Virus record (IMG/VR): IMGVR_UViG_3300031673_000208
Location: 1 to 38,422 of that record
Direction: 5' to 3' (one strand)
DNA: 38,422 nucleotides
Source of the DNA: a virus
The notes under the pieces are model-generated. The model did no database searches. It had not been told where the DNA came from and saw only the letters and a list, made by a program, of their open reading frames with translations. A program made the position numbers and the translations under genes. Numbering within the stretch: position 1 is the first letter of the stretch; every line of letters starts with the position of its first letter. Positions 6,551 to 35,235 of the stretch are shown in pieces.

Positions 6551-6741
6551 CGGCACCGGAGAAGCCAGGTTTGAAACATACGGGGCGCACGATGTTGTAC
6601 AGTAAGTATGCGGTTTGCGAGAGGTTCGGGATGACGCCGAGCGAGTTCAACCAGTTAGGCCGAGTCGAGCAGGTGAGGCTATTAGCGTATGAGGGGCTAC
6701 GTCGCGATGAGGCGTGGGCCGCCTTCCATAAGGAATCCTGA
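6547..6741 (+). CDS. Tail chaperone extension ORF (gpT-like)
   Basis: 64 residues if started at the ATG of the ATGA overlap, or the C-terminal part of a 242-residue fusion if reached by the -1 frameshift at 6529-6535. The sequence RTMLYSKYAVCERFGMTPSEFNQLGRVEQVRLLAYEGLRRDEAW contains the short helical pattern common in T-domain ORFs and in the second tail chaperone ORF of many siphoviruses. The stop overlaps the tape measure ATG by one base (TGATG). Direct start and frameshift are not exclusive, but the position strongly favours a G/GT arrangement. Confidence 0.6.
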   Translation: MTAPEKPGLKHTGRTMLYSKYAVCERFGMTPSEFNQLGRVEQVRLLAYEGLRRDEAWAAFHKES

Positions 6742-12500: not shown

Positions 12501-12514
12501 ATTGCGCCGTATAA
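9509..12514 (+). CDS. Tail-tip protein with C-terminal CXXX repeat domain
   Basis: 1001 residues. Residues 1-690 are a beta-rich tail hub or tip region (for example FDWGGAIGNKWYSDIP, ITITLDDRDGVIRGYM, VTWEEGKARLRYL), consistent with the slot after the distal tail gene. From residue 694 the sequence becomes Cys-rich: three CXXX tetrads at 694-705, six from 717, then 43 consecutive tetrads from 756 ending with Cys 928. Most tetrads read Cys-Glu-X-X (CETG, CESG, CEVS). A further ten Cys follow, among them ECC, PCFC and GGCEPGC, with aromatic residues at the end (WSYWYES). The linker between the two blocks contains MVRNKEDWLEG. Even i,i+4 spacing over 172 residues suggests a regular fibre. The downstream radical SAM/SPASM enzyme is the likely modifier; disulfide or metal binding are alternatives. 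Confidence 0.75.
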   Translation: MKTLSAAMKLARARLGTYPWNVVRFDWGGAIGNKWYSDIPSGDASGSSATNLAVRVVDWGAYTLPQAEGRTAAAVADITITLDDRDGVIRGYMRSVGHTRIPATVYQVFSPAGAADMIILLKGVSVAPFHWREMDGTIAIDITERAGQFNQVVGTVVTSEDWPYLGADQSAMLPIVFGRVDRRKAFLLEGTVETSLSAPLQQDGWDLYVNDSEDFPQNTTIKLWLDGEVIRGRFKDGNKFWTEYRGDNSYQGFATSTAQHLLEVRCTNLPPPISQYIGLPISIQRGFGAFAEIYERQIVGVDASISALYFDRVCSYYDPTGRIVDWYVVGGAPIHIDGEVREHQKGTRVILKRDAYTWVVNDQPSKSVVAVEASITNIARRNYWGPDDLLVSAAPTSGYAAIPPTMRTINLSNGGLIAGRNLTTITMTVLPTMVGPEFEFTGDDLYVTLNGCYDAGGATVKSPPDVIRELGYRYLGMEVGDFDQASFEDVKDQLTWCHFGFMLQDQYQGLDLFADLAMQARCMVTWEEGKARLRYLREGPYGVCAATGGEQREAWSLEIHHESPEDVITEIVAKFTRKANKSAHHVVRSVGAMAIYGRRVLNLDLWAHNQIQTVRPVADFWLERLSHAHERGRAKTFLRLLEVERGDVLEVRWTPDFVTLHGEVMSVHHQLGNAPEDRMDNVTLEFRLPRWGGCESGCEMPCEVGTEMMYDKALAGCELACTYHCQSTCEEACEITCVSGYELSMVRNKEDWLEGCASACQANCTTTCVATCQVACETACASGCEVYCETTCESHCEVYCETGCETECESSCETACQAACQSECESGCELGCETGCETDCESGCETECELGCEVYCQTGCESSCEAGCETGCESGCEITCQTTCEAGCETSCETGCEVTCETGCEVSCETGCEAACESGCEVSCEVSCTAGGSECCYLPCFCWHDDLGDPYLEACTYNPLCAPWTTGNCTYSQYGGCEPGCIDYNDLLPWSYWYESNNCAV
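11774..12292 (+). repeat. 12-bp coding repeat array (CXXX tetrads)
   Basis: Forty-three uninterrupted 12-base units, each coding a Cys-X-X-X tetrad, plus a terminal Cys codon. The consensus is TGY GAR NNN NNN. Units are degenerate at third positions (TGC and TGT, GAG and GAA alternate), so the amino acid pattern is kept while DNA identity drifts, which argues for selection on the protein. Shorter related blocks occur at 11588-11623 (3 tetrads) and 11657-11728 (6 tetrads). Confidence 0.9.
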
Positions 12515-13297: not shown

Positions 13298-14827
13298 ATG
13301 CTTAGAATACTGAACGCGGGCGCGGCACCTACAACCGGGACACTGCCGGGCGCAGCCGAGCCTCAAGTAACTTTCTTTGCCGTGCTTGGGGATCACTTCA
13401 TATACGACGCTAATAGTATGGCCCTGGCGCATGTGGAGCCGGGGTTGTGGCGGACGTTGCGCGATAACGCGAGCGCGGGCGAGGAGTTCGGCGGTATATT
13501 CTGGAGCCGTAACAAGCCGCAATTTCATTCATACCCCCCAAGAACCCAAGCCCTCGTACTGAATGTGACCCATAACTGTAATCTCGCGTGCCGGTACTGC
13601 TTCGTCCGTAATATAGACGATTACCGGCGTGCGCGATTGCCTGAGATGACGTACGAGACTGCCATTGAAAGCATTCAGCATTTTTTCCCGCGCGGTAATA
13701 AGGTCCGTATTGATGTGGGGTTTTTTGGCGGGGAGCCCTTTTTACGGTGGAACCTCATGAAGCGCGTGGTCGAATGGGTCGAGAACGAGGCGAAGCAGCG
13801 CGGCGTCGAAAGGAAATTTTACGTAACCACCAATGCTACGCTCGTCGATGAAGAGAGGGCTAAATGGTTAGCGCTGCATGAATTCAGTCCAACAGTTAGC
13901 CTGGACGGCAACGAGGTCACGCACAACGCCATGCGGCCTAGCCGAAACCCCAAACAAAATAGCTGGCTGATGACGATGAAGGGGCTGGAACAGTTGGCGG
14001 CTGTCGGTCTCGGATTACGGGTAACGCTGCGTAGCACCTTTACAGGTGAGGGCGTCGATCTGACTGAGCGGTTGCGCGATTTGAACACGCTCGTCTGGCG
14101 GGGTATGGGCGGCGCTGTAGCCGTCGAGCCCTCTTCCCTCTCCGAAGCTAGCTGCATTGACGCTAGCGCCACCAAAGGACTCGTTTTCGATCCTAATAAT
14201 ATCCGAGCGCAACTTGGGTTCCAATACGAGCACGCGGCGGAGTGGTACATCGAGCAAATCAACGACGGTCGTAGGCCGCACTTCCATCACTTCGACATCT
14301 TTATCCGCCGACTCCTATGGTGCGAGCGCAATCCTTCGGAATGCGGGGCCGGTAAAGGGTATATATGTATAAATCCGGAAGGCCACGTCCACGCTTGCCA
14401 CCGAGAAACGCGATCCCGGATAGGTGCATTACCTTATGGGATTGATGAGGAATTGCGGACGCCGTGGCTGGACAACCGGCTGTACGCGCGTACCGGGTGT
14501 ATGGCGTGCGACCTGCGCTACCTGTGCGGCGGCGGTTGCCGCCTGAATAGTCTGGCTTTCGGCCTACCTATATCTCAGCCCGTACCCGATGACTGCATTT
14601 TCAAGCGACTCTGGTTCGAAAGCGCCGCACACATCATGGCGCACATAGACTCCACAAAACTCCAACAGTTATACCCACCCAAGAGAGGGAGGAAAATCAA
14701 TGTTCCCGCCCGACGACCGGAGCATCAACGGACAACTAGGCGAGATAGCGGGGTCCCTGACGGGGATCAACACCACGATGGGGGACGTGAAGGACAACAT
14801 CGGCAAGTTGTTCGACAAGGCGGATGA
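13298..14827 (+). CDS. Radical SAM/SPASM peptide maturase-like enzyme
   Basis: 509 residues as an open frame; the recognisable enzyme ends near residue 465. The radical SAM motif is CNLACRYCF (Cys 94, 98, 101), binding the 4Fe-4S cluster that cleaves S-adenosylmethionine, followed by GGEP at 144-147. The C-terminal SPASM-type region has Cys 349 (ECGAGKGYIC), 357, 367 (HACHRE), then 401, 404, 410 and 414 (GCMACDLRYLCGGGC) and 433, giving auxiliary cluster ligands. CGAG followed by PEGHVHACH resembles maturases that form Cys-derived thioether bonds (SCIFF/ranthipeptide and QhpD type). An upstream N-terminal stretch could be a peptide-binding domain. A GGGGGGATAGG site precedes the ATG. The 128-base overlap with the next gene is odd: the last 40 residues look like out-of-frame coding. 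Confidence 0.8.
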   Translation: MLRILNAGAAPTTGTLPGAAEPQVTFFAVLGDHFIYDANSMALAHVEPGLWRTLRDNASAGEEFGGIFWSRNKPQFHSYPPRTQALVLNVTHNCNLACRYCFVRNIDDYRRARLPEMTYETAIESIQHFFPRGNKVRIDVGFFGGEPFLRWNLMKRVVEWVENEAKQRGVERKFYVTTNATLVDEERAKWLALHEFSPTVSLDGNEVTHNAMRPSRNPKQNSWLMTMKGLEQLAAVGLGLRVTLRSTFTGEGVDLTERLRDLNTLVWRGMGGAVAVEPSSLSEASCIDASATKGLVFDPNNIRAQLGFQYEHAAEWYIEQINDGRRPHFHHFDIFIRRLLWCERNPSECGAGKGYICINPEGHVHACHRETRSRIGALPYGIDEELRTPWLDNRLYARTGCMACDLRYLCGGGCRLNSLAFGLPISQPVPDDCIFKRLWFESAAHIMAHIDSTKLQQLYPPKRGRKINVPARRPEHQRTTRRDSGVPDGDQHHDGGREGQHRQVVRQGG

Positions 14828-15029
14828 ACACACGCGGCAGCTTGCCGGTATGGGGGCTACGGTAGAGGCTATGGTGAACACGTGCGTGGGGCAACGTAAG
14901 GGGATGTGCGATCGAATGGGCGTCATCGAGGAGAAACAGGATCGTGGTACTAAGAGATTCATAGGTCTGTTGATTGGGATGGTCTTAACCCTTACCGGCC
15001 TTGTAGTCAGCCTTTTAAGGGGGAAATGA
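14700..15029 (+). CDS. Coiled-coil membrane protein, XhlA/holin-associated-like
   Basis: 109 residues with GGGAGGAAAATCA before the ATG. Residues about 5-80 are helical with heptad-like spacing (INGQLGEIAGSLTGINTTMGDVKDNIGKLF), containing two Cys (NTCVGQRKGMC). One C-terminal membrane segment (FIGLLIGMVLTLTGLVVSLL) ends with the basic tail RGK. This design, N-terminal cytoplasmic coil and C-terminal anchor, matches XhlA-type haemolysin/holin accessory proteins. The gene begins inside the 3' end of the radical SAM frame and overlaps the glycosyltransferase by ATGA. Confidence 0.6.
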   Translation: MFPPDDRSINGQLGEIAGSLTGINTTMGDVKDNIGKLFDKADEHTRQLAGMGATVEAMVNTCVGQRKGMCDRMGVIEEKQDRGTKRFIGLLIGMVLTLTGLVVSLLRGK

Positions 15030-16057
15030 AAGTGTTAATACGGGTACTGCGCGAGGCGGGCGGATTGGGCGACTTGATACGCATATTCGCTGTACTGCAG
15101 GCGTTGAAGGACAAGTACCCCGGCAGCAAGACTCACTTTTTCTGCCTGTCCCACTACCAGGAACTCGTGATGAATGGACACTGCGGCGCAGTGGATGTGT
15201 TCGTTTCTATACCTCACGATCTACGGCGCGACCGGATGTCGCCGATAGACGAGGCCGAGCACCGATACCTCCGGACCGGCTGCACGTACGATATGGACGT
15301 CGATCTTTATTGTCCGGCGTGGGTACACGAACGAGAGACCCATGGGGCCGTGACGCGAGAGCGCACGGAGTTGTGGGCAACGTCGGCGGGGGTTCCCACA
15401 CGGCGACCCGTCATGCATCTTTCGAGTGAAGAACGCGCGTGGGCGCGCTCGTGGTTCGAAGCCATCATGTTCCCTGCGTGGGATAGATGCGGCGACTCTA
15501 AGAAGCTCATTGTAATACAACCTCGGTCTACCGCTTCAATTCGTAATTGGATGGAGGAGCACTGGTGCGAGCTTATACTTAAGTTCACGCAGGAAGGCCA
15601 TGCCGTCGTACTACTCGATAACTGCACCGGCCCGTCCCACGGATGGCCGTCCACGCTCAGGGAGATTAATCGACCCTTCGGCCAGCTCGCTTGTATCGTG
15701 TCCATGGCCGACCTCGTTGTCTCACCGGATTCGGGCGTCTATCATTTGGCCGGGGCGCTCAAAGTGCCCGCTCTTGGCATCTTTCACTCGACGAACGGCG
15801 CGATTATATCTAGTATATGGAAGGGGACCGGCTACGCCGTTACACCTAACGGCAAGAGTACCAGGCACGATGGCTGCTTGGACCCCTGTTATGGCTTCCC
15901 TCAGCGGGGCCGGACCCGCAAGTGCAACTCAGACGGCTGCGTACTCGCTCACCAGATTATACCGGATGACGTGTTCCGCAGAGGAATGGAGATTTTAGAT
16001 GAACATAGCGGAATTGATGGGGGATATCAGCGACTGCCCGCCGAAGCCGTCCGTTGA
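15026..16057 (+). CDS. Glycosyltransferase family 9 (heptosyltransferase-like)
   Basis: 343 residues. GGLGDLIRIFAVLQALKDKYPGSKTHFFC is the N-terminal Rossmann motif of GT9 enzymes (GD...T.P....L), and the C-terminal donor-binding half has LIVIQPRSTASIRNWMEEHW, then LVVSPDSGVYHLAGALKVPALGIFHST, the DSG..H.A.A...P....F motif typical of ADP-heptose:LPS heptosyltransferases. These enzymes transfer sugars from nucleotide donors. In a late phage operon the target may be a tail protein or host surface sugar. A C-terminal CLDPCYGFPQ...CNSDGC segment is Cys-rich, as in several phage and bacterial GT9 relatives. Its gene overlaps the next by 59 bases. Confidence 0.75.
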   Translation: MKVLIRVLREAGGLGDLIRIFAVLQALKDKYPGSKTHFFCLSHYQELVMNGHCGAVDVFVSIPHDLRRDRMSPIDEAEHRYLRTGCTYDMDVDLYCPAWVHERETHGAVTRERTELWATSAGVPTRRPVMHLSSEERAWARSWFEAIMFPAWDRCGDSKKLIVIQPRSTASIRNWMEEHWCELILKFTQEGHAVVLLDNCTGPSHGWPSTLREINRPFGQLACIVSMADLVVSPDSGVYHLAGALKVPALGIFHSTNGAIISSIWKGTGYAVTPNGKSTRHDGCLDPCYGFPQRGRTRKCNSDGCVLAHQIIPDDVFRRGMEILDEHSGIDGGYQRLPAEAVR

Positions 16058-16772
16058 CTACTTCGATAAGGCATACTGGAAGGACGCCAGCAAGTCCGGT
16101 TATCGGGGGTACGGACCGGGCTGGCATATCCATTGGGAGATAGGCCAGATGCTGGCCATCGGGCTCGCACCATGGCTAGAAAGCCCACGTCCGCCCGTTA
16201 ACGACGACGACGCGCGTGTACTCGATCTCACACGTGTACTCGATGTCGGCGGCGCATTTGGTTATCATATGAAGTGGCTCCAAGAGTTCGCCCCCTGTAT
16301 CGGTCACGTCGTAGACGCCTCCGCGTACGCGATCCTCAACCTCGACAGGGCTCTCGACGGTAGAGGTTGGCACCTCGATGCGGGCGTTGACAAGCTTCCG
16401 TTCCCGGATAATTATTTCCATCGGGTCGTAGCGATCGAGTCACTGGAGCACATCTACATCAAGGAAGTGCCGTTCGCAATCCGCGAGATCGCTCGCGTGT
16501 TGGATGTCGGCGGAATCCTGTATAGTTCGATCGCTATGGGCGAACGCTACGATCCGGACTTTATTGATATCACACACCAAACCATGCGCCCGGAGGTATG
16601 GTGGGTTCGGATGCTTGAGCGCGCCGGTTTGGAGAGGCGACCGGACATCGAGGATCAGATGAAGGCCGCCGTCGTCCCGCGACTACACGGCAAGACACCA
16701 ACGGCCCCTGATGGGTTATTGGCCTTGAAGATGAGATGGAATGTTGTATGCTGTTCGAAAGGAGGTGAATGA
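15999..16772 (+). CDS. Class I SAM-dependent methyltransferase
   Basis: 257 residues. Motif I is VLDVGGAFGYHMKWL (about residues 80-94), followed by the acidic VVDAS strand end, and a post-core region VDKLPFPDNYFHRVVAIESLEHI with the usual methyltransferase-11 layout (D.LPF.D..FD.V....LEH). IREIARVLDVGGILYSS matches the R.LkpGG motif. The N-terminus (YFDKAYWKDASKSGYRGYG) is common in methyltransferases paired with glycosyltransferases. It starts within the end of the glycosyltransferase gene. The substrate, possibly a sugar on a tail protein or cell surface, is unknown. The final residues CCSKGGE are encoded by the ribosome site of the next gene. Confidence 0.75.
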   Translation: MNIAELMGDISDCPPKPSVDYFDKAYWKDASKSGYRGYGPGWHIHWEIGQMLAIGLAPWLESPRPPVNDDDARVLDLTRVLDVGGAFGYHMKWLQEFAPCIGHVVDASAYAILNLDRALDGRGWHLDAGVDKLPFPDNYFHRVVAIESLEHIYIKEVPFAIREIARVLDVGGILYSSIAMGERYDPDFIDITHQTMRPEVWWVRMLERAGLERRPDIEDQMKAAVVPRLHGKTPTAPDGLLALKMRWNVVCCSKGGE

Positions 16773-22348: not shown

Positions 22349-22413
22349 TAGACGCAGGACTGGCGTTTGATGTTCTACTACCGTTACCAGCGGGAGCCTT
22401 AGATGCTCGATGA
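22345..22413 (+). CDS. Possible 22-residue leader peptide before DNA polymerase
   Basis: A short ORF (MIDAGLAFDVLLPLPAGALD, then AR) starts in an ATGA overlap with the preceding gene and ends inside the first codons of the polymerase gene. It may only carry ribosomes from one gene to the next. There is no protein-level evidence. Confidence 0.25.
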   Translation: MIDAGLAFDVLLPLPAGALDAR

Positions 22414-24766
22414 GGTGCACGGTTACTGGATGAGGAGGAAGGGCGAGCCCACGGTCATGCTCGTGGGCGAGGCTCCTGGGCGGCAAGAAATCATCGAAGG
22501 TGAGCCGTTCGTAGGAGACTCCGGCCAGCTACTCCGGACGGCCTTAAAGAAGGCGAAGGTGCCGGGCCGAATCTACCTCACGAATGTATGCCGGGAGCGC
22601 GTCAAGCCCACGGCGGAGCACATCAAAAAGTGGATGCCGAAGCTAGAGGAGGAGATACTGCAAGTCAACCCGGATGTGATAGGGGCGGTCGGCAAGGTCG
22701 CGCTAAAGGCGTTGACCGGTGAGACCTCTATCACGAAGGCGTTAGGTAGAATAATGAAGATCGGCAAGTATACGGTCGTGCCAATGCTGCACCCGGCTGC
22801 GGTGCTGCATTCAGACGGACGCTCACTGGAGGATTTCGCGTTGGGCGTAGTGCGGCTACAAGCAGCAGCGACGGGTGAATGGGGAACCGAACGGATGCCC
22901 GTCGAATACCTCACGGACCTAGGCGAGATCGAGGACATGCTTAAATGCGCGAAGGAAGCGGGGGCCATCGCGCTCGACGTGGAGACGAACGGGCTCGACC
23001 CCGTAGCCCTAGGTATGACGGGCGGCGACGGCGCGCGTATTGAGGTTGTGGGTATTGCGTTTGGCGGGCGAGGGTATGCATTCGACTTTCACCGGAGCCC
23101 GCATAGGCCGAAGCTGCACCGGTGGCTGTGTCGGCTGATGGAGTTCCCACCTAGCGGGTTCGAGCCGCTAGTGGTGTGCGCTCACCGAGCCAGCTTCGAG
23201 GTATCCTGGTTGGAGGCCGTCTTGGGCATCGACGCCACCGCGTTGGACTGGCGTGACTCGAAGCTCGACGCGCATCTATACGACGAAAACCTACCTAATG
23301 ATCTCAGCACGCTGGCGTGGAGGTTCACGCCCTGGGGCGGCTACGACGCCGAGGTGGCAGACCTCGTGGCTCACGGTACGATGCACTGGCAAATACCGAG
23401 CGAAAAGTTGGCCCCGTATTGCGCCGGGGACGCGCTCTGCTCGTGGCACCTCCATTCGACGTTCTGGAACGAGGAATTCACGCCGAAGCAAAGGGCGCTG
23501 GCGTTGGATGTCCTTTACCCGATGGAGGTGGTATTAGGAAGAATACGCCAGCGCGGGTTGCACGTCTCGCGGTCGAGGATTGCTGCGGCCACGCATCAAC
23601 TAAGAGATGAGGCTAATACTTTCGTGCGTAACATGGAGAAGTCGAAATACTGGGGCGCGATACAGAAGGTGACGGCGGCAAAGGAATTCAAGCTTAAGTC
23701 CACGCTCCAAATACGGGCACTAGTGAAGCACCTAGGACTCAAGCCTATAAAATTTACAGATACCGGGCAGGTGAGCACGGAAGCTATGTGCCTTGATGTA
23801 TGGGCCGACCGCCAGCCGCTTATGGCGGAGTTACGGGATGCGCGGAGCGCGGACGCGATGATATCAGGGTTTCTGGTCCCGTTCGACGAGAGGGCGCGGG
23901 CGGACGACACCATCTGCACCGATTACACTTACGGGACCGTAGTGACCGGACGGCTCTCGTCGAGGAGCCCGAACCTGCAGAATATGAAGCGCGAGGGTCC
24001 GGTCCGGAAGTGCTTTACCAGCCGGTTCAAGAACGGGCTCATAGTAGAGATGGACTGGTCGCAGTTAGAGGTCCGATTATGCGGCGTGTTGTCTGGCGAG
24101 AAGCGGCTGTTGGAGGCGGCGCGCGAGGGCGACATGCACCTGACCATGGGGGCCATCATTTACAACAAAGCGCTGGAGGACGTAACGAGCGAAGAGCGGT
24201 ATGAGGGTAAGCGGGTAATTTTCGGTATCTTATACGGTCAGACTGCGGGTGGGCTAGCTAGGAATCTTAATAAGACGACCGACTACGCGCGGTCGCTCAT
24301 CAGGCGCTTGCTCGACGGCGTTCCGACCTACAGGCGATGGAGGAAGACGCAGCGCGACAAGATGACCCAACTTGGATACGCGGAGGCCATTACCGGGAGG
24401 CGGCGGCACCTATCGCGCCTCCAGGACCGCGACGCAAAGCTGGTGGACGAGGCTGTGGGTCAAGGACTCAACTTCTTAGTACAGAGTGCCGCAGCCGATA
24501 TCGTCCACAACACGGCATACTGGTTAGAGGTGGAGATGCGGCGGTGCTTGTGCGAGTCGATATTGGTGGCCGAGATACACGATTCACTCGTAGTGGACGC
24601 GACCAAGAAGGAAGTGACGTTAGTCATAGACCTGATGCAGCAAGCGGCGGCGGGCGTGGTGCGGGCTTTTGACTGGCTCCCGTTCCCATTACCCATCGAT
24701 ATCAAGTATGGTCGGAGCTTAGGACAACTGGAATCAATAGGGGAGGAGGACGATGGCGAAAATTAG
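22403..24766 (+). CDS. Uracil-DNA-glycosylase-like domain fused to family A DNA polymerase
   Basis: 787 residues. Residues about 17-150 match the family 4 uracil-DNA glycosylase fold: GEAPGRQEIIEGEPFVGDSGQLL and HPAAVL (His 130), but the usual N-terminal Fe-S cysteines are missing. Next comes a 3'-5' exonuclease (ALDVETNGLD: Asp 192, Glu 194). The polymerase palm follows, with motif A EMDWSQLEVRL, motif B GKRVIFGILYGQTAGG (Phe at the Taq F667 position) and motif C EIHDSLVV. No 5'-3' exonuclease. A UDG-like domain on a PolA enzyme is also known in phage SPO1 polymerase. The nearby PurZ homologue raises the possibility that it is a 2-aminoadenine-adapted DpoZ-type polymerase, not testable by eye. 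Confidence 0.85.
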   Translation: MLDEVHGYWMRRKGEPTVMLVGEAPGRQEIIEGEPFVGDSGQLLRTALKKAKVPGRIYLTNVCRERVKPTAEHIKKWMPKLEEEILQVNPDVIGAVGKVALKALTGETSITKALGRIMKIGKYTVVPMLHPAAVLHSDGRSLEDFALGVVRLQAAATGEWGTERMPVEYLTDLGEIEDMLKCAKEAGAIALDVETNGLDPVALGMTGGDGARIEVVGIAFGGRGYAFDFHRSPHRPKLHRWLCRLMEFPPSGFEPLVVCAHRASFEVSWLEAVLGIDATALDWRDSKLDAHLYDENLPNDLSTLAWRFTPWGGYDAEVADLVAHGTMHWQIPSEKLAPYCAGDALCSWHLHSTFWNEEFTPKQRALALDVLYPMEVVLGRIRQRGLHVSRSRIAAATHQLRDEANTFVRNMEKSKYWGAIQKVTAAKEFKLKSTLQIRALVKHLGLKPIKFTDTGQVSTEAMCLDVWADRQPLMAELRDARSADAMISGFLVPFDERARADDTICTDYTYGTVVTGRLSSRSPNLQNMKREGPVRKCFTSRFKNGLIVEMDWSQLEVRLCGVLSGEKRLLEAAREGDMHLTMGAIIYNKALEDVTSEERYEGKRVIFGILYGQTAGGLARNLNKTTDYARSLIRRLLDGVPTYRRWRKTQRDKMTQLGYAEAITGRRRHLSRLQDRDAKLVDEAVGQGLNFLVQSAAADIVHNTAYWLEVEMRRCLCESILVAEIHDSLVVDATKKEVTLVIDLMQQAAAGVVRAFDWLPFPLPIDIKYGRSLGQLESIGEEDDGEN

Positions 24767-25010: not shown

Positions 25011-25940
25011 GTGGCGAAGAAGAAGAGAGGACTTGCCGCTAGGCTTGTACCGGACTTGAAGGCTGAGGCCGACAAGATTCAGGCGAGCGGCGGCGGAGGA
25101 CAGTTTTGGAGGCCCGACAGCGACACGACGTATTACCTTAGGCTGCTGCCGTTCGTGCATGAGAAGGAGGCGCACATCTTCCGTGAGGTGTGGGAGCACT
25201 TCGGCGTCGGCGACCGCAAGGGCGCGATTAACTGCCCGGCCCATGATGAGGTGGAACCAACCGACTGCCCCATTTGCGTCCAAATAGCGGAATTGGGCTT
25301 GGACGATTCGAGGATGGAGGCGCGCGGGCGGTATTACTGCAACATCGTCGTCCGTGACGCCGAGGATCGCGGGGTACGCATGTTCCCGGTTCCCCCTGGA
25401 GTCGCTAAGAGCATGCTCGATGCGCTCGACGACCCCGAACTCGGAGACGAGGTCTGGGACCCGGAAGAAGGCCGCGACATCCAGCTCAAGAAGACCGGAA
25501 GCGGTCTGCAAACCGAATACAGCGTCAAGCTCCGGATAAAGGTAGACCCGCTCGACTCGTCCTTCTACGACGATGCGGTCGATCTCCTCGAAAAAGAGGA
25601 GTTGGGTCCGCTCGGCGAGGAGGAATTGGAGGAGATCGCTGCCTCGATGAAGGAGGGCGGTAAGTCGCCAAAACGGAGGGCCAAGAAGGATGAGCCCAAA
25701 GAGGAAGAGTCGGAAGAGCCAGAGGAGGAACCTGAGGAGGAGGAAGGCGAAGAAGGCGGGGAAGAGGGCGACGGAGAAGAGCCTCCCTGCTTTGGGGACC
25801 CGAAGGAGTACGATCCCGACGATTCCATCTGTGGAGAATGCGACTTCGCCGAGGACTGCGCCACTACAGTGAAGAACAAGAAGAAGGCCGGGACCAAGAA
25901 GAAGGCCGGAACCAAGAAAGGTAGCAAGAAGAAGTTCTAA
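25011..25940 (+). CDS. gp32-like single-stranded DNA-binding protein
   Basis: 309 residues from GTG, with AAGGAG in the end of the preceding gene. The basic start (KKKRGLAARL) leads to an OB-fold-like core: YYLRLLPFVHEKEAHIFREVW, then NCPAHDEVEPTDCPIC, the zinc-bearing insert of T4 gp32-like phage SSBs, and RYYCNIVVRD. A very acidic tail follows (about 210-260, Glu-rich), as in SSB partner-binding tails. Unusually, after it comes a second four-Cys region (CFGDPKEYDPDDSICGECDF, then EDC) and a Lys-rich end with KKAGTK repeated. It coats ssDNA at forks and would recruit polymerase, helicase and primase encoded nearby. Confidence 0.75.
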   Translation: MAKKKRGLAARLVPDLKAEADKIQASGGGGQFWRPDSDTTYYLRLLPFVHEKEAHIFREVWEHFGVGDRKGAINCPAHDEVEPTDCPICVQIAELGLDDSRMEARGRYYCNIVVRDAEDRGVRMFPVPPGVAKSMLDALDDPELGDEVWDPEEGRDIQLKKTGSGLQTEYSVKLRIKVDPLDSSFYDDAVDLLEKEELGPLGEEELEEIAASMKEGGKSPKRRAKKDEPKEEESEEPEEEPEEEEGEEGGEEGDGEEPPCFGDPKEYDPDDSICGECDFAEDCATTVKNKKKAGTKKKAGTKKGSKKKF

Positions 25941-25943
25941 GCC

Positions 25944-26162
25944 GTGGATTCGGGCGCAGGGTCCGGGGGCGGAAATTCCTGCGGATATGGCGATGAGCCT
26001 TACCGCTGCACGCGTGCGTCGCGTTGCAGGTCCCTGCGCCTGCTAGAATTGGAGGTCAAGAGTGATTCATGTGAGAAGCGCCGGACGCCAGACTCCGAGG
26101 TTGAAGGTGGAGCCCGGCAAAGCGTATATCGTGATGGACGGCCAATGGGGTTCGTGCGGTAA
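25944..26162 (+). CDS. Possible small Cys-containing ORF upstream of purZ
   Basis: 72 codons from GTG (MDSGAGSGGGNSCGYGDEPY). It contains three early Cys and LRLLELEVK, but has no clear ribosome site and overlaps the first 100 bases of the PurZ-like gene. It may be a real short protein with read-through into the overlap, or chance. The alternative is that 25941-26061 is only a leader. Confidence 0.2.
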   Translation: MDSGAGSGGGNSCGYGDEPYRCTRASRCRSLRLLELEVKSDSCEKRRTPDSEVEGGARQSVYRDGRPMGFVR

Positions 26163-27240
26163 AGGGAAGGTGGCGGCGTGGTTGGCGGACAAGGCGCATG
26201 CGGATAATTTCAGCGTTGCGGTGTGCGACTTTCCCCCGAACGCAGGACATACGTGGTTGACGGACAACGGTACGAGACACGTAGTCAAGCAAATCCCAAT
26301 ATCCGCAGCCGTGGACCCGAATATGGAAATCTTCATCGGACCCGGCGCGATGTTGGAGCCCGACGTGTTCCTTGAAGAGGTAGGCTGGTACGACGTAGCG
26401 GAACGACTCCGCATTCATGAGCACGCGGGGATTCTAAGGCCGGAGCACGCGGAAGTGGAGAAGGTCACGTTACGCCGGATCAGTTCGACCTTGAAGGGGT
26501 GCGGACGCGCGCTCGCGAGCAAGATAATGAGGGAAGACGACTCAGTGGCTAAGAATGAGCCGAGAATATCGCCCTATTGCCTGACGGCCACGGAGTACGT
26601 GAACGCTCTATGCGACCGGATGGAGAACGGGGCGTCGGTGCTGGTAGAATCGAGCCAAGGGTTCGACCTGTCGCTGGATCACGGCTACGACTACCCGTAC
26701 TGCACAAGCCGTAACATTACGCCAGCAGCCATCCTGGATCGATGCGGGATTCCGCTCCGCTATCATGGCGGGACGCTCGGCGTTCTACGCGCGTTTCCGA
26801 TACGGGTCGGCTCGCTCGAAGGAGCAACCTCAGGGCCGTGCTACAGCGACCAATACGAGATGACGTGGAAGGAGATCAGTGAGGGCGCGGGGGAGGACGT
26901 AATCGAGCGGACGACCGTGACGAACCGGGTGCGCCGGGTATTCAGCTTCTCGTTCCAGCAACTCGATAGGTTCCTGGCGCTGTGCGACCCCACCGATCTG
27001 TACGTCAACTTCGTGAATTATTGGGGTAAGCGCGAGGACGGGTCGTCGTCGTCGTCGTTGCCGCTCAGCAAACTCGGTAAGGAGGAGCTGGAAGGTATCG
27101 AGGAACATCTGCGGTTCGAGTACGGGAGACACTGGCCGTCGAGAGTTAAACCGTACATCGTCGGTATCGGTTACGGGGCCAAGGACGAAGAGACCATGTG
27201 GGATGAGGATATAGGAGGGTTGATAGAGTGCGACGGGTAG
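26062..27240 (+). CDS. purZ: PurZ-like 2-aminoadenylosuccinate synthetase
   Basis: 392 residues from GTG with TTGGAGGTCAAGA upstream. It is a clear PurA/PurZ homologue: P-loop-like MDGQWGSCGKGK (residues 25-36), NAGHT (His 63), ESSQGFDLSLDHGYDYPYCTSRN, LRAFPIRVG and the aspartate-binding loop ERTTVTNRVRRV. PurA has a catalytic Asp in GQWGDEGKGK; here it is Ser 31. Replacement of that Asp by Ser marks PurZ enzymes, which join dGMP and Asp to make the precursor of 2-aminoadenine (Z). The product would be cleaved by host PurB to dZMP and phosphorylated. It sits between SSB and a nucleotide kinase. A host-type PurA role is unlikely given the Ser. Substrate specificity is inferred. Confidence 0.8.
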   Translation: MIHVRSAGRQTPRLKVEPGKAYIVMDGQWGSCGKGKVAAWLADKAHADNFSVAVCDFPPNAGHTWLTDNGTRHVVKQIPISAAVDPNMEIFIGPGAMLEPDVFLEEVGWYDVAERLRIHEHAGILRPEHAEVEKVTLRRISSTLKGCGRALASKIMREDDSVAKNEPRISPYCLTATEYVNALCDRMENGASVLVESSQGFDLSLDHGYDYPYCTSRNITPAAILDRCGIPLRYHGGTLGVLRAFPIRVGSLEGATSGPCYSDQYEMTWKEISEGAGEDVIERTTVTNRVRRVFSFSFQQLDRFLALCDPTDLYVNFVNYWGKREDGSSSSSLPLSKLGKEELEGIEEHLRFEYGRHWPSRVKPYIVGIGYGAKDEETMWDEDIGGLIECDG

Positions 27241-27995
27241 AGTTCATCGCCGGGCCGTGCGCGAGCGGCAAATCGACCATCGCGCTGTTTCGTCTTCGCC
27301 GGGCGTACCTCGCGCAAGGCGGGACTCCGGCTGTAATGCTTCGGACGATCCTACAGGCATCATTAGGCCGACTCAAAAATCGCCTCTCATGCGGCCATGA
27401 CCCATTGGAGATATTGCCAACTCCGACATGGCCGGTTGCCATTTTACCGGCGGGGTATGTGTACCGGGTGATGCTCCAATCTCCTGGGGGCGAACTTAAC
27501 GGGTTGGATAATAAGAGCGTGGCCCCATCATTCGAATTTGTATTGCGAGGCCTCTTAGATTGGATGGTCCCGCAGTACGAGACCGTCATCGTAGACGGTA
27601 TGCCGCGCACGAGGGACCAAGTGTGGTGGATCAAGCACCGATGGGGTAACGCGGACAGTCCGTGGCGGGAGCAAGGCACCGATGAGATTGAGGTACACGC
27701 GTACTTCGTCGATTGCCCTGTCGGTGTCAGGATGGTGCGTCTTGCGGCGCTAGGTGAGGATATGGACTCGACCCGATGTCAACGCGCAAGGGGGGCGGAT
27801 TCCGACTTCTCAGAGTTAAAGTCTGTGTGGGTGGACCGGGAAAAGATGCCCGCGTCCGTCACCCGCAACAAGCACCAGGACCAGGACCTGATGGGCGTGC
27901 AGGAACCGATAGAGGCGGCATTGGACCCGGCCTTCGAAAGGTGGGCTCTGACAAGGACAAAGGAGCAGATATGGGAATCCGTGACGAAATCGTAA
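27228..27995 (+). CDS. P-loop nucleotide kinase (adenylate-kinase-like)
   Basis: 255 residues from GTG with AGGAGGG upstream. The N-terminal GPCASGKST is a Walker A loop, and VIVDGMPRTRDQVWW carries the DG.PRT motif of adenylate kinases (usually DGFPRT), with an Arg-containing segment further on (RMVRLAALGED) and CQRARGAD as a lid-like region. The usual LID Cys/zinc module is absent. It overlaps the PurZ-like gene by 13 bases and the reductase start by 25. In context it may phosphorylate dZMP (or dAMP-like nucleotides) to the diphosphate; this is inference. The insertion between the P-loop and DG.PRT (residues about 30-120) is longer than in typical adenylate kinases. Confidence 0.7.
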   Translation: MRRVEFIAGPCASGKSTIALFRLRRAYLAQGGTPAVMLRTILQASLGRLKNRLSCGHDPLEILPTPTWPVAILPAGYVYRVMLQSPGGELNGLDNKSVAPSFEFVLRGLLDWMVPQYETVIVDGMPRTRDQVWWIKHRWGNADSPWREQGTDEIEVHAYFVDCPVGVRMVRLAALGEDMDSTRCQRARGADSDFSELKSVWVDREKMPASVTRNKHQDQDLMGVQEPIEAALDPAFERWALTRTKEQIWESVTKS

Positions 27996-30193
27996 ACAGA
28001 CTGTACTGCCGTGAGGGCGAGAATCGCGGGAACGTATGCCACCGAGTAGCGAAGTCGATATGGGGGGATGACCCCGAAAAGATGACGGAGTTACGTACCT
28101 TGATGGAGGACGGCGACGCGTGCTTGAATTCCCCGGCGCTCATGAACGCGACGCCGGGGAAGAAGTTCCAATCGTCGGCGTGCTTCGTGCTCCCGGTCGA
28201 GGATTCATTGGACAGCATAAGCGAACTGCTCAGGGTGGCGACGAAGGTATATAGGCATGCCGGGGGAGTAGGCGTGGATTTCTCTCCGTTACGGGCCGAG
28301 GACTCCCCGGTGTCCGGGGGCGGTAAGGCGTCCGGCCCGGTTAGCTTCATGAAGCCGCTCGCCGCGATGGGGGCTGTGATACAGGCTGGAGGCCGGGCTC
28401 GCAAGGCGGCCACGCTGGTTACGCTCGACGCTGAACATCCGGACATACTCAAATTCATCTACTCGAAGAGAACCGATCCGGGCGGGCTGTTGTCGAACAT
28501 CAATATATCGGTACGCGTGCCTCGTGGTTGCGGCGGCGATACGTGGGATGAGATTTGTAAGAGCGCGTGGGCGTGCGGCGATCCCGGCGTCATATTCCAG
28601 GACACGCTCGATGACTTGAATCCGTGCCCATCATTGGGCTCGTGTGGGAACAATCCATGCGCCGAATTCTCATTTCCTCCAGGGAGTGACGGGGCCGCGT
28701 GTTCGCTCGGCTCCATCAATCTGGCGAACTTCGTAGGCGAGGGTGGGGGGTTTGATATTCACCGTTTCATGGCGGTATCGTCCTTCATGGCCGTGGCGCT
28801 GGACCGGATGATAGACGTGAGCAGTTACCCCACCGCTAAGCTGGAATACTTCGCGCAGACGTACCGGCCCATTGGTTTGGGTGTGGCGGGGCTCGCGCTC
28901 GCGCTTATTAAGATGGGGATGGTGTACGGCTCGCCGGGGGCGTGCCGCTTCACCAAACACGTTATCGCCATTATGGATTTCGCGGCTGTCGAGCAATCGA
29001 TACGGCGCGGCGAGAAATTTCAATCTAAGATGGATGAGGACGACATCGACCAATGGACGGGCGTGATAATGCCGCGCAAGCGTGCAGGCTGGTATGCCGC
29101 CGCTACTCGGTTCGGCGTCGAGATCGATATTGGGTACATCAGTAAAGGTGTCGAGAACGGTCGCTTGAAGAACATGGCGCACACGTGCATTGCGCCTACG
29201 GGCTCCATCTCCTGGTTCATGGGTTGCGGCACGTCCACGGGCATCGAGCCCATCTACAAACTCGCGTATATGCGGAAGTACGCGGCGGGAACCAAGGAAG
29301 AGGTTGTAGTATCAGAGGCCCTAGACCAAATCACGAACTTGGAGGAGCGCAAGCGCTTAACCGAAATTATTCTACAGAACGATGGGGTGATACCTGACAG
29401 AGAGACGCCGAGTGAGTATTGGTTACCGTTCATCACGGCCCATGAGGTCACGCCTGCGGAGCACGTGGAGATGGCCGCAGCGGCTCAGGCATCCGTTACC
29501 ATGTCCGTCTCGAAGACGGTGAACTTACCCGCCGATGCGACCGTGGAAGATGTGGACCGTACGTTTAAGCTCGCGTACGCGAAGGGGATGAAGTCGATTA
29601 CCGTCTACCGTGACGGATGCCTAGCCGATCAGCCATTGTCATCGGTATTCAAAAAGCCCGTGGCCGAGATGATGGACAAGGATGGGAATGTGACGTTAAG
29701 CATCCACACCGACAAGATCGTAGTGACTACCGCGCCGAGGGCTGAGTACCGGAAGAAGGTCCTCCACGGCGCAACGTACAAAGTGAACACGCCGCAGGGC
29801 AAGATGTTCGCTACTATAAACGAGGACGAGGGCCGAGTGATGGAGATTCTGCTCAAGTGCGAGAAGCCCGGCACTGACAGTAACGCGTGGGTGATAGCCT
29901 TGGGCCGGACGCTGAGCATCGCGCTACAGGAGGGGGCCGACCCGAAGAGGCTGGCGACCTCCCTCGTCGAGATAGCGTCGTCGAGCGTGGTGTGGGATTC
30001 GCTTGACGGGGGGATGAAGCCGATGCCGATATATTCGGCCCCGGACGCCATCGGCAAGCTTATCCTCTTTAAGCATCTGCCGCTCCCGGACGTGCATCCA
30101 CAAATGAAGTGCCCGGAGTGCGGGGAAGAGGCCGTGATCGTCGTGGCCGGGTGCAAACAGTGTACTTTCTGCGGATGGACAAAATGCGGGTAG
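27971..30193 (+). CDS. nrdJ: Class II (B12-dependent) ribonucleotide reductase
   Basis: 740 residues from ATG 27971; the frame is open further upstream but AGGAGCAGAT precedes this ATG, which overlaps the kinase gene. Motifs: PALMNATPGKKFQSSACFVLPVEDSLDSI (a first redox Cys), GGVGVDFSPLR, NPCAEFSFPP (the N-C-E active-site triad), then IAPTGSISWFMGCGTSTGIEP. The C-terminus has CPECGEEAVIVVAGC and CTFCGWTKCG, which are zinc-ribbon and thioredoxin-accepting Cys. This matches NrdJ, which needs adenosylcobalamin and no oxygen. No NrdB partner is present. It supplies deoxynucleotides, including dGTP/dGDP for the Z pathway upstream. Confidence 0.85.
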   Translation: MGIRDEIVNRLYCREGENRGNVCHRVAKSIWGDDPEKMTELRTLMEDGDACLNSPALMNATPGKKFQSSACFVLPVEDSLDSISELLRVATKVYRHAGGVGVDFSPLRAEDSPVSGGGKASGPVSFMKPLAAMGAVIQAGGRARKAATLVTLDAEHPDILKFIYSKRTDPGGLLSNINISVRVPRGCGGDTWDEICKSAWACGDPGVIFQDTLDDLNPCPSLGSCGNNPCAEFSFPPGSDGAACSLGSINLANFVGEGGGFDIHRFMAVSSFMAVALDRMIDVSSYPTAKLEYFAQTYRPIGLGVAGLALALIKMGMVYGSPGACRFTKHVIAIMDFAAVEQSIRRGEKFQSKMDEDDIDQWTGVIMPRKRAGWYAAATRFGVEIDIGYISKGVENGRLKNMAHTCIAPTGSISWFMGCGTSTGIEPIYKLAYMRKYAAGTKEEVVVSEALDQITNLEERKRLTEIILQNDGVIPDRETPSEYWLPFITAHEVTPAEHVEMAAAAQASVTMSVSKTVNLPADATVEDVDRTFKLAYAKGMKSITVYRDGCLADQPLSSVFKKPVAEMMDKDGNVTLSIHTDKIVVTTAPRAEYRKKVLHGATYKVNTPQGKMFATINEDEGRVMEILLKCEKPGTDSNAWVIALGRTLSIALQEGADPKRLATSLVEIASSSVVWDSLDGGMKPMPIYSAPDAIGKLILFKHLPLPDVHPQMKCPECGEEAVIVVAGCKQCTFCGWTKCG

Positions 30194-32862: not shown

Positions 32863-33549
32863 ATGCGGAAGTTTTTCGTAGCCGATTGCCGTAAGGTTTT
32901 ACCTAAAGTATCGGGCGTTGACATGGTGCTCACCGACCCGCCCTTTGCTATTTCCAGAGGTGACTTCGAGACCTCCTGGTGTGGTTATAAGTCCCATAAG
33001 GGTGATTGGGATTGGACCGAAGCCGTTGGCGGGGAGTGGGTTCATATGTGCTGCGACGCGTTACGTCCTGGCGGCGTCTTCTGTTGTTTCGGGGTGTTCG
33101 GCTCGTTGATGCCAATCTGGCAGGTCCTAGAGGTGAGGGAGGACATGCAATTTCAGAGCCATATCGTGTGGCACAAAACGAATCCGACCCCTAGCGTACA
33201 TCGGAGGATGCTCACGCATGCTAATGAAATCATCCTGCTGTTCAGTAAAGGACCCAAGTGGTATTTTGATTATGCGCTGAGCAAAGAGTACGGCGGTGGT
33301 AAGCAATTACATAACGTGTGGGAAGGCCCTGCTGCGCGCCGGAAGTTGACCCGACCCCGAAAACCCCCGTGGTTACTTGAAAGGCTTGTGCGTCTCTTTT
33401 GCCCGGAAGATGGAATTATACTCGATCCTTTCGCCGGGACAGGCGGAGTATTGGAGGCGGCCAACGCCTGGAATCGAAATTGGATAGCGATCGAGATTGA
33501 TCCAGAAATGCGATCGGTACTGTTAGACGTAAGAGAGGATCGGATATGA
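32863..33549 (+). CDS. DNA methyltransferase (DPPF type)
   Basis: 228 residues. DMVLTDPPFAI (motif IV, residues about 20-30) precedes FAGTGGVLEAA (motif I, about 190-200), the order of the beta class of amino-methyltransferases. HIVWHKTNPTP and LLFSKGP are typical of these enzymes. It methylates an exocyclic amine (adenine N6 or cytosine N4), cannot tell which. No restriction nuclease is adjacent, so it is probably an orphan protecting phage DNA. Overlaps the next methyltransferase gene by four bases. Confidence 0.75.
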   Translation: MRKFFVADCRKVLPKVSGVDMVLTDPPFAISRGDFETSWCGYKSHKGDWDWTEAVGGEWVHMCCDALRPGGVFCCFGVFGSLMPIWQVLEVREDMQFQSHIVWHKTNPTPSVHRRMLTHANEIILLFSKGPKWYFDYALSKEYGGGKQLHNVWEGPAARRKLTRPRKPPWLLERLVRLFCPEDGIILDPFAGTGGVLEAANAWNRNWIAIEIDPEMRSVLLDVREDRI

Positions 33550-34553
33550 GGCGCGTGGGACCTTTTCAACTTAACCGGACATATTGCTGCGATGCAATGC
33601 GAGGGATGCGTCGCCTACCCGATCGCTCCGTACAGACGTGTGTGACGAGCCCGCCGTATTGGGGGCTCCGAAATTGCGACATCGAGGGAACGTATGGGGT
33701 AAACGAAACGATGGAGGAATACCTTGATAAGATGGTAGTGCTGTTTCGGGAAGTAAGGCGCGTGCTAAAGCCCGACGGAACCTTCTGGCTGAATATGAAC
33801 GATGCGTATGCAGGCGGCGGGAGCAAGGCGCGACCGGGAAAGAAGGGGGGTGGCACGGCGTTGTTTCGGGCCGACGCGGGCAACATAGCCGGGGCGAACA
33901 AAGCCGCTACTGGATTAAAGCCAAAGGACCTCTGCGGTTTACCGTGGCGGCTGGCCCTCGCGCTTCAAGCCGATGGTTGGTGGCTCAGGTGCGACATTAT
34001 CTGGTATAGGTCCAATATGATACCCGAAAGCGCGAAAGATAGGCCGAGTCGTACTCACCAGTACATCTTTCTATTAACACCGTCCGCGAGCTGCTATTAC
34101 GATCGGGAAGCCGTCAGAGTCGAAGAACGAGGATATCTACGTTCGGTGTGGCGCGTGGCTTCGCACGCCTTCAGGATGAAACGTTGCCGTACTTGTGGTG
34201 TGGTAATGACCCAGGGTGCGTGGGATAAGCTTGAACCTGCGGGGGAACGGCGTCTTGGTCCTAAAACTCGACGTTTCCACGAGGATGTGAAGGATCGAAT
34301 ATGTTCGGCTTGCGCGACCTCTGAATGGGTCTCCCATTACGCCGGATTTCCGGAAGAATTAATCGAACCGTGCGTGAGATCGAGCACCGGCAAAAGTCAT
34401 GATGTCGTCCTCGACCCGTTTATGGGCAGCGGTACGACCGGCGCGGTGGCGCTAAAATTCCGCAGGCACTTTCTAGGGTTTGAATTGAATCCAGATTACG
34501 TGGCGATGGCTAATTGGAGGACGCGGCGCACAGAGGAGGAGGTCCCAGAATGA
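33546..34553 (+). CDS. DNA methyltransferase (SPPYW type) with zinc insert
   Basis: 335 residues. TSPPYWGLR (motif IV) is near the N-terminus and DPFMGSGTTGAVAL (motif I) near the C-terminus, again beta-class order. SPPYW is commonly N4-cytosine or N6-adenine. A Cys-rich insert in the middle (CRTCGVVMTQG, then ICSACATS) forms a zinc ribbon. It likely modifies a short target in phage DNA. It forms a pair with the previous methyltransferase. If adenine is replaced by 2-aminoadenine the substrate specificity would be of interest. Confidence 0.75.
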   Translation: MRRVGPFQLNRTYCCDAMRGMRRLPDRSVQTCVTSPPYWGLRNCDIEGTYGVNETMEEYLDKMVVLFREVRRVLKPDGTFWLNMNDAYAGGGSKARPGKKGGGTALFRADAGNIAGANKAATGLKPKDLCGLPWRLALALQADGWWLRCDIIWYRSNMIPESAKDRPSRTHQYIFLLTPSASCYYDREAVRVEERGYLRSVWRVASHAFRMKRCRTCGVVMTQGAWDKLEPAGERRLGPKTRRFHEDVKDRICSACATSEWVSHYAGFPEELIEPCVRSSTGKSHDVVLDPFMGSGTTGAVALKFRRHFLGFELNPDYVAMANWRTRRTEEEVPE

Positions 34554-34792
34554 AGAAGTGGTTGTTGGTGGTCTTACTTGTGTGGAACCTAGTGCTCACG
34601 TTCGCTGCGGTACGTTCGTGTGGTACGGACCGAGCGTTGGTACAGGTGCAGGTTGAGCAAGGTATTCATCATCTCGCACTGTGCGATGGCGTTCAACGTT
34701 TAGGTCGGGTGCACGATGGGTACGTCGAACATTGGAAGGGTGAAATCAATCGCCTGGATAAGGAAATCAACCGAGTACGGTGGGGGAGGTAA
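34550..34792 (+). CDS. Small N-terminally anchored membrane protein
   Basis: 80 residues from ATG 34550 (ATGA overlap, with AGGAGGAGG upstream). One N-terminal segment (WLLVVLLVWNLVLTFAAV) preceded by Lys-Lys makes it a type II membrane or secreted protein; Cys at 24 follows the segment. The C-terminus is a charged helix (DGYVEHWKGEINRLDKEINRV). An i-spanin-like shape, but no o-spanin partner or lipobox found. Confidence 0.5.
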   Translation: MKKWLLVVLLVWNLVLTFAAVRSCGTDRALVQVQVEQGIHHLALCDGVQRLGRVHDGYVEHWKGEINRLDKEINRVRWGR

Positions 34793-34794
34793 GA

Positions 34795-35235
34795 TTGAAG
34801 AGGTATACGGAGATCGTTTGCTTATGCGGCTCGACGAAGTTTAAGGAGGAGTGGCTCGCCGAACAGGCGCGGCTGGAGGCGGCGGGCGCGTTGGTCCTCA
34901 CGGTCGAGGCTTTCATGCACGCGGATGGGATAGCGCTTACGATGGACCAGAAGGCGCACCTTGACTGCCTGCACTGGAGTAAAATCCAATGGTCCGACCG
35001 CGTGGTAGTCATCGATCCGGGCGGGTACATCGGCAGCAGTACGAAGTTCGAAATCATGATGGCGCGCAGGTTCGGTAAGCCGATAACCTTTATCAGCACG
35101 CGCAGGGACGACGGACGATTCCCAATCTACCCAGTGAAGGAGGATGACCTTGATGCGGTGGAAATATTGGAATGCGACGGACACGATTCGGGTGAACGCG
35201 AGAGTGGACGAGGCCACGGGCCGCCTAGCATCTAA
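34795..35235 (+). CDS. Nucleoside 2-deoxyribosyltransferase-like protein
   Basis: 146 residues from TTG with GGGGGAGGTAAGA upstream; the in-frame GTG at 34780 would have no site. IVCLCGSTKFKEEW is the start motif of nucleoside 2-deoxyribosyltransferase-like proteins (YLAG/CGSTKF), then LDCLHWSKIQWSDRVVVIDPGGYIGSSTKFEIMMA, with the S.D and T..E motifs of the family. These bind and move or cleave deoxynucleosides. In this phage it could tune the purine deoxynucleotide pool near the Z pathway, unproven. The last 25 residues overlap the next gene by 83 bases. Confidence 0.65.
   Translation: MKRYTEIVCLCGSTKFKEEWLAEQARLEAAGALVLTVEAFMHADGIALTMDQKAHLDCLHWSKIQWSDRVVVIDPGGYIGSSTKFEIMMARRFGKPITFISTRRDDGRFPIYPVKEDDLDAVEILECDGHDSGERESGRGHGPPSI

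What the first reader, a model, noticed from the sequence alone, without database searches (positions are those of the whole stretch)
26062..27240. PurZ-like enzyme: probable 2-aminoadenine (Z) genome
The PurA homologue has Ser in GQWGSCGKGK where PurA has the catalytic Asp, and keeps NAGHT, TTVTNRVRR and YDYPYCTSRN. PurZ in Z-genome phages shows this Asp-to-Ser change. The phage may replace adenine with diaminopurine, giving resistance to restriction enzymes.
Basis: partly seen in the sequence, partly recalled or inferred. Interest (0 to 1): 0.85.

Follow-up and report, generated by a model that had tools for sequence, protein, structure and literature searches.

The report
Divergent PurZ with partner nucleotide kinase
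This uncultured phage carries a distant version of PurZ, the enzyme that lets some phages replace adenine with 2-aminoadenine, but instead of the usual partner genes it is paired with an adenylate-kinase-like enzyme, a pairing that recurs in about 25 uncultured phages; whether their DNA really contains the altered base is not shown.

Summary
In detail: window 26062-27240 encodes a 392-aa PurA homologue with Ser31 at the position of PurA's catalytic Asp. It is not a PurA. It lies inside the viral PurZ clade (100/99 support) with phiVC8, S-2L and SH-Ab 15497, and keeps nearly all published S-2L dGMP/ATP-pocket residues. It is divergent: 36-38% identical to cultured phages' PurZ, 43% to metagenomic ones, and below NCBIfam's PurZ cut-off. 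Ser alone is not diagnostic, because chromosomal PurA paralogues of bacteria and archaea carry it too.

The Z-genome claim is only partly supported. In the recovered 38.4 kb there is no DatZ, MazZ, DutZ or DpoZ; the record is probably a fragment. purZ instead overlaps an adenylate-kinase-like gene, which overlaps a class II ribonucleotide reductase gene. Of 78 PurZ loci with enough downstream sequence, 43 have DatZ/MazZ, 25 have a kinase next to purZ, and none has both. Polymerases of the kinase class form their own PolA group outside both DpoZ lineages.

Best reading: a third kind of Z-gene cluster, in which PurZ makes dSMP, the host lyase dZMP, and the phage kinase dZDP. Kinase substrate and virion Z content are inferred, not shown.

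The parts
26062..27240 (+). PurZ-type enzyme (392 aa); Ser31 replaces PurA's catalytic Asp; dGMP and ATP pocket residues kept
   Evidence: trees
27228..27995 (+). Adenylate-kinase-like NMP kinase (255 aa), overlaps the purZ end by 13 nt; P-loop GPCASGKS, NMP-site motif DGMPRTRDQ, conserved G76/R80; likely dZMP kinase (inferred)
   Evidence: family alignment; family profile hits adenylate kinases in PDB E 5e-18; AlphaFold model pLDDT 74.7, Z 15.1 to human AK1 2c95 over 166 residues. No Pfam, PHROG or BLAST hit on its own
27971..30193 (+). Class II (B12-dependent) ribonucleotide reductase, start overlaps the kinase end; supplies deoxynucleotides
   Evidence: NCBIfam NrdJ TIGR02504, 423.6 bits against cut-off 400; start codon and ribosome-binding sequence
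22403..24766 (+). Family A DNA polymerase with N-terminal family-4 UDG-like domain and 3'-5' exonuclease; helix O keeps Tyr (RYEGKRVIFGILYG); outside DpoZ-1 and DpoZ-2
   Evidence: trees
25011..25940 (+). Single-strand DNA binding protein between the polymerase and purZ
   Evidence: PHROG_1192 E 9.5e-29

Best explanation
26062-27240 is a divergent member of the phage PurZ clade. Most likely it joins aspartate to dGMP using ATP (or dATP), giving dSMP (N6-succino-2-amino-dAMP), the committed step to 2-aminoadenine (Z) nucleotides. Host adenylosuccinate lyase would give dZMP. The overlapping adenylate-kinase-like protein would phosphorylate dZMP to dZDP, and host NDP kinase would give dZTP, which the phage's UDG-PolA polymerase would put opposite T, replacing part or all of the adenine. 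Shown here: clade, pocket residues, gene overlap, kinase fold and NMP-site motif, recurrence of the PurZ-kinase pair in many phages, and its separation from the DatZ/MazZ class. Inferred: substrates of both enzymes, dZTP use by the polymerase, and presence of Z in virion DNA.
For: PurZ: inside the viral PurZ clade with phiVC8, S-2L and SH-Ab 15497 (99 SH-aLRT; 100/99), away from canonical PurA and from PurZ0. Of 27 positions of the S-2L dGMP/ATP pockets and aspartate loop checked (listed in the paper), 21 are identical to S-2L (S31, N60, A61, S142, T143, R157, Q199, Y213, C214, T215, R248, V249, TTVT 284-287, R291, N316, F317, among others), and N319 is as in phiVC8. Kinase: next gene, overlapping; adenylate-kinase family by profile and fold; invariant residues correspond to the adenylate kinase P-loop and AMP site. 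Conservation: kinase next to purZ in 25 of 78 distinct viral PurZ loci, DatZ/MazZ in 43, both in 0; the three labels need 5 changes on the PurZ tree against 30 when shuffled. Relatives have the kinase fused or adjacent to an all-alpha NTP pyrophosphatase (PF08761) or a dUTPase (PF00692); one has a dATP/dGTP diphosphohydrolase (PF18909) instead of the kinase. Window and kinase-class polymerases group together, apart from both DpoZ lineages (100/99).
Against: NF038379 score 218.7 is below its curated cut-off of 300. No DatZ, MazZ, DUF550/5664, DutZ, DmtZ or PF08761-type pyrophosphatase found in this record. The polymerase lacks the helix-O Tyr-to-Phe change shared by both DpoZ groups. Depletion of A/T-containing 6-bp palindromes (0.64) suggests that restriction still acts on such sites. 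The kinase has only about 14-22% identity to its relatives and no solo database hit. The published Z-phages analysed mostly have DatZ or DutZ (PMC12884076).
Confidence: 0.6

Rival explanations
1. Standard Z-phage of the phiVC8 type: PurZ works with DatZ, MazZ and DpoZ, which lie in the unrecovered part of the genome.
For: The record is an IMG/VR 'linear' record, often a fragment; no terminase or portal was identified among the ORFs examined, so genes are probably missing.
Against: In phiVC8-type phages datZ and mazZ sit within a few kb of purZ, where this record is intact and holds kinase and ribonucleotide reductase instead. Its only family A polymerase is not DpoZ. 0 of 78 loci have both kinase and DatZ.
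Confidence: 0.1
2. PurZ-type enzyme that raises the dZTP pool but gives only partial or incidental replacement of adenine, because the polymerase does not discriminate and dATP is not removed.
For: No dATP-removing enzyme found; helix O keeps Tyr; A/T-containing palindromes are depleted.
Against: S-2L has a non-selective PrimPol (PMC8065100, abstract), so lack of a selective polymerase is no bar if dATP is removed; relatives carry NTP pyrophosphatase domains beside the kinase; the polymerases of PurZ-kinase contigs cluster together rather than with ordinary phage PolA.
Confidence: 0.2
3. The enzyme uses another purine nucleotide (IMP, dIMP or XMP), and gene and kinase serve purine supply (an auxiliary PurA plus adenylate kinase making ADP/dADP), not base replacement.
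For: The partner is an adenylate-kinase relative, and chromosomal Ser-type PurA paralogues of unknown function also sit beside or are fused to kinases.
Against: It groups with proven dGMP-using PurZ, not with the cellular paralogues, and keeps the Ser and the Val (S-2L V241) linked to dGMP binding.
Confidence: 0.1

Closest known systems
PurZ of Vibrio phage phiVC8 (6FM1), Synechococcus phage S-2L (7ODX) and Acinetobacter phage SH-Ab 15497
   Same: Same clade; same Ser for Asp; same dGMP pocket; ATP-site Asn as in phiVC8
   Different: About 29-37% identity; partner gene is a kinase rather than MazZ/DatZ; longer C-terminal tail; N-terminal extension
Bacillus phage vB_BpsS-140 PurZ (MH884512)
   Same: Shares the extra residue in GxxYPYCTSR and the SSTLKGCG motif; that genome also encodes an annotated adenylate kinase and a dUTPase
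   Different: Its adk gene is about 9 kb from purZ rather than adjacent
Uncultured phage contigs L021-L029, L038, L039 (IMG/VR)
   Same: Closest PurZ (43-44%); kinase directly downstream in all but L027/L028; related UDG-PolA type polymerase
   Different: Kinase is fused or adjacent to a dUTPase_2-like NTP pyrophosphatase, not found in the window
PurZ0 class (Arthrobacter phage Wayne, Gordonia phage Ghobes; DutZ, DmtZ, DpoZ-1; PMC12884076)
   Same: PurA-derived enzyme with Ser, PolA polymerase
   Different: Different branch of the tree; no DutZ or DmtZ found here
Adenylate kinases (human AK1 2c95, B. subtilis 1p3j)
   Same: Fold (Z 14.7-15.1), P-loop, DGxPRxxxQ motif
   Different: About 15% identity; insertion after the P-loop helix; substrate unknown

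Membership tests
PurZ (succino-aminodeoxyadenylate synthase) | Ser in place of the catalytic Asp of PurA | tested here: met
   Ser31. Not exclusive to PurZ
PurZ (succino-aminodeoxyadenylate synthase) | Groups with verified PurZ, not with PurA | tested here: met
   100/99 clade with phiVC8, S-2L and SH-Ab 15497 PurZ; 99 in the 137-row tree
PurZ (succino-aminodeoxyadenylate synthase) | dGMP/ATP pocket residues known from the S-2L structure | tested here: met
   exceptions are Y21 to W29, G130 to S141, Y272 to R283, L278 to R289, Q308 to N319 (Asn in phiVC8), P336 to A373, all at positions that also vary among the other PurZ compared
PurZ (succino-aminodeoxyadenylate synthase) | Curated NCBIfam score NF038379 of at least 300 bits (a naming threshold) | tested here: not met
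   218.7 bits, still the best of all NCBIfam models (PurA models 168.9 or less)
PurZ (succino-aminodeoxyadenylate synthase) | Makes dSMP from dGMP and Asp | not testable with these tools
   needs an enzyme assay
phiVC8-type Z-cluster | datZ and mazZ beside purZ | tested here: not met
   No hit in the window at E up to 10 with profiles that find them in known Z-phages; absence from the unrecovered part of the genome not testable
PurZ0-type Z-cluster | DutZ (and usually DmtZ); PurZ0 branch | tested here: not met
DpoZ-1 / DpoZ-2 polymerase | Falls in a DpoZ clade; helix-O Tyr to Phe | tested here: not met
   NF038380 31 bits against cut-off 500; outside both clades; Tyr kept
Adenylate kinase family (27228-27995) | P-loop, DGxPRxxxQ AMP-site motif, adenylate kinase fold | tested here: met
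   Pfam ADK does not match this sequence alone but matches 18 of 22 aligned members
Z-genome phage | 2-aminoadenine in virion DNA | not testable with these tools
   needs LC-MS of virion nucleosides

The most novel reading that the evidence does not exclude
There is a third, separately assembled kind of 2-aminoadenine phage, in which PurZ works with a dedicated dZMP kinase (in relatives fused to an NTP pyrophosphatase) and a third lineage of family A polymerase, in place of both DatZ/MazZ/DpoZ-2 and DutZ/DmtZ/DpoZ-1.
Probability: 0.5. Interest if true: 0.75.

Novelty: new variant of a known kind. Interest (0 to 1): 0.62.

Why it matters
The published accounts read here assign the steps from dSMP to dZTP to host enzymes (PMC12884076, PMC8342488), and recognise two sets of partner genes with two polymerase lineages. 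A recurrent phage-encoded kinase beside purZ would fill the missing phosphorylation step, would be a natural candidate for dZTP production in engineered cells, and would indicate that Z-DNA was assembled a third time with a third polymerase lineage. It would also widen the known range of Z-phages.

Tried and rejected
Searching IMG/VR with the window's PurZ alone gave one relative; the alignment of 16 PurZ gave over 560. Searches with the window kinase and with the 34780-35235 protein alone found no viral relatives.

Profiles of DatZ, MazZ, DUF550/5664, DutZ, DmtZ and the PF08761-like domain found nothing in the window.

34780-35235 was considered as a DmtZ-like nucleoside deoxyribosyltransferase (motif CGSTKF...GGYIGSSTKFE; 35% identical to an Anabaena phage protein annotated deoxyribosyltransferase). 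It has no Pfam or PHROG match, no match to a profile made from the DmtZ proteins, and its single-sequence model is uninformative (pLDDT 39). Left open.

Palindrome avoidance as a sequence test of Z-DNA: an apparent excess avoidance of GC-only sites in PurZ phages vanished with a larger control set. Rejected as a test; the window's own strong avoidance is reported only as weak evidence.

The iterated kinase profile drifted into the fused pyrophosphatase domain, so kinase calls rest also on position next to purZ and, for most loci, P-loop/DGFPR motifs read directly.

A separate origin of PurZ and PurZ0 was tested and not resolved (AU p 0.10).

Full report
What the window is. It is a whole 38,422-base IMG/VR virus record, classed linear and probably a fragment. 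Head, tape-measure, tail and replication genes lie on the + strand: tape measure 6741-9068, UDG-PolA polymerase 22403-24766, SSB, PurZ, ribonucleotide reductase, DnaB-like helicase, two DNA methyltransferases and primase. No terminase or portal was recognised among the ORFs examined.

The observation. Its best family is PurZ in NCBIfam (218.7 bits; PurA models 168.9 or less) and PHROGs. It is 36-38% identical to the PurZ of Burkholderia phage Bm1, BUCT555, phiVC8 and vB_BpsS-140. The score is below NCBIfam's cut-off for naming PurZ (300), so by that rule it would not be named automatically.

Is it PurZ or PurA? In a 137-row tree with canonical PurA, the short archaeal PurA, cellular Ser-type paralogues, PurZ0 and PurZ, it falls inside the viral PurZ clade (99 SH-aLRT). 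In a careful 50-row tree that clade has 100/99 and the window groups with kinase-class contigs (96/85). It sits on a long branch. Mapping the S-2L pocket residues listed in PMC8342488 shows Ser, Asn-Ala, Ser-Thr, Arg, Gln, Tyr-Cys-Thr, Arg-Val, TTVT, Arg, Asn-Phe and the phiVC8-type Asn all kept.

The partner gene. The next gene, 27228-27995, overlaps purZ by 13 nt, has its own ribosome-binding sequence, and overlaps the class II ribonucleotide reductase gene starting at 27971. Alone it has no Pfam or PHROG match. Aligned with the genes directly downstream of purZ in related contigs it gives a family with invariant P-loop, G76/R80 and P126-R127-Q131, matching the adenylate kinase P-loop, Arg36, Arg88 and Gln92 (E. 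coli numbering from general knowledge). The family profile, which included the vB_BpsS-140 adk, finds adenylate kinases in the PDB at E 5e-18. The predicted structure (21 sequences, pLDDT 74.7) matches human AK1 with Z 15.1, 2.5 A over 166 residues (Foldseek E 1.2e-05 to adenylate kinase 5).

Is the pairing meaningful? Among 78 distinct viral PurZ loci with at least 900 bases downstream, 25 have this kinase next to purZ, 43 have DatZ and/or MazZ, 10 have neither, and none has kinase and DatZ together. On the PurZ tree the three labels need 5 changes against 30 for shuffled labels. The loci are the best 80 by similarity to the window plus known phages, so these are not frequencies in nature. 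In relatives the kinase is fused or adjacent to an all-alpha NTP pyrophosphatase (PF08761; L021-L026, L029, L038, L039) or to a dUTPase (PF00692; fused in L046, adjacent in L034); in L027 the place is taken by a PF18909 dATP/dGTP diphosphohydrolase plus a dUTPase. These could do the pool-control job of MazZ, DatZ or DutZ; that is inference.

The polymerase. The window's polymerase is a family-4 UDG-like domain, 3'-5' exonuclease and PolA. It scores 31 bits against a DpoZ cut-off of 500. Both known DpoZ groups have Phe for the helix-O steric-gate Tyr (PMC8599892); the window and the kinase-class relatives whose motif was read keep Tyr. With eight phage polymerases from outside the PurZ set, the kinase-class polymerases form one clade (100/99), apart from DpoZ-1 and DpoZ-2 and nearest SPO1-like PolA. 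With many more PurZ-less contigs the grouping remains (13 PurZ rows, 90 SH-aLRT, not starred) and the PurZ label needs 3 changes against 20 when shuffled. This is a candidate third Z-polymerase lineage, not a proven one.

What is missing. Profiles for DatZ, MazZ, DUF550/5664, DutZ, DmtZ and the PF08761-like domain find nothing in the window. If the genome is Z-DNA, how dATP is excluded is open. A protein at 34780-35235 resembles nucleoside deoxyribosyltransferases by motif, but this could not be confirmed.

Mechanism (shown or inferred). Shown: PurZ clade and pocket; overlapping genes; kinase fold and NMP-site motif; recurrence and exclusivity of the pairing. From published work: PurZ makes dSMP from dGMP and Asp, host enzymes complete dZTP (PMC12884076, PMC8342488). 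Inferred: the phage kinase acts on dZMP, taking over a step done by the host in other Z-phages; the ribonucleotide reductase feeds deoxynucleotides; the polymerase incorporates dZTP.

Evidence against a Z genome. A/T-containing 6-bp palindromes are depleted more in this window (0.64) than in most other contigs (about 93% of 91 have a higher value), with CTCGAG and GTCGAC nearly absent; such avoidance is less expected if Z protected these sites. The same statistic does not separate PurZ from non-PurZ phages in general, so its weight is low.

Verdict. Observation confirmed; enzyme assignment well supported; Z genome plausible but unproven. The most notable result is the kinase-paired class of PurZ loci, not found in the papers searched (most subscription journals and all preprints are outside that library).

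Noticed in passing
9509-12514 (repeat about 11580-12290), with 13298-14827: A tail-like protein (1001 aa) ends in a long cysteine array: 63 Cys after residue 690, 52 spacings of exactly four residues (C-x-x-x repeats). About 800 bases downstream is a radical SAM protein (PF04055, CNLACRYC, Cys-rich C-terminus). Possibly a virion protein cross-linked by a radical SAM maturase.
   Followed up: partly
L149:5911-10727, L157:7482-10336 and similar chromosomal loci (L116-L179): Bacterial and archaeal chromosomes carry Ser-type PurA paralogues besides canonical PurA: about 340 aa next to an RNase_H_2/kinase fusion and a deoxynucleoside kinase, or about 540 aa with a kinase domain fused in front. Unknown operon.
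   Followed up: partly
PurZ/PurZ0 tree: With cellular Ser-type paralogues included, PurZ0 and PurZ do not come out as sisters; AU p 0.10, so the single origin stated in PMC12884076 is neither rejected nor confirmed.
   Followed up: partly
34780-35235: Nucleoside deoxyribosyltransferase-like motif protein (CGSTKF...GGYIGSSTKFE); possible DmtZ-like function, unconfirmed.
   Followed up: partly
32863-33549 and 33546-34553: Two adjacent N6/N4 DNA methyltransferases (PF01555); whether they act on A, Z or C is unknown.
   Followed up: no
15026-16772: Glycosyltransferase family 9 and a SAM methyltransferase side by side in the late region.
   Followed up: no
L039:11137-12690: A 518-aa protein downstream of purZ joins kinase, PF08761-like pyrophosphatase and a C-terminal YLAGPI... 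domain resembling nucleoside deoxyribosyltransferases (sequence).
   Followed up: no
L103 (DJLZ01000001.1, 994 kb contig): A PurZ-type gene on a long contig of a 1.8 Mb genome with no canonical PurA found.
   Followed up: no
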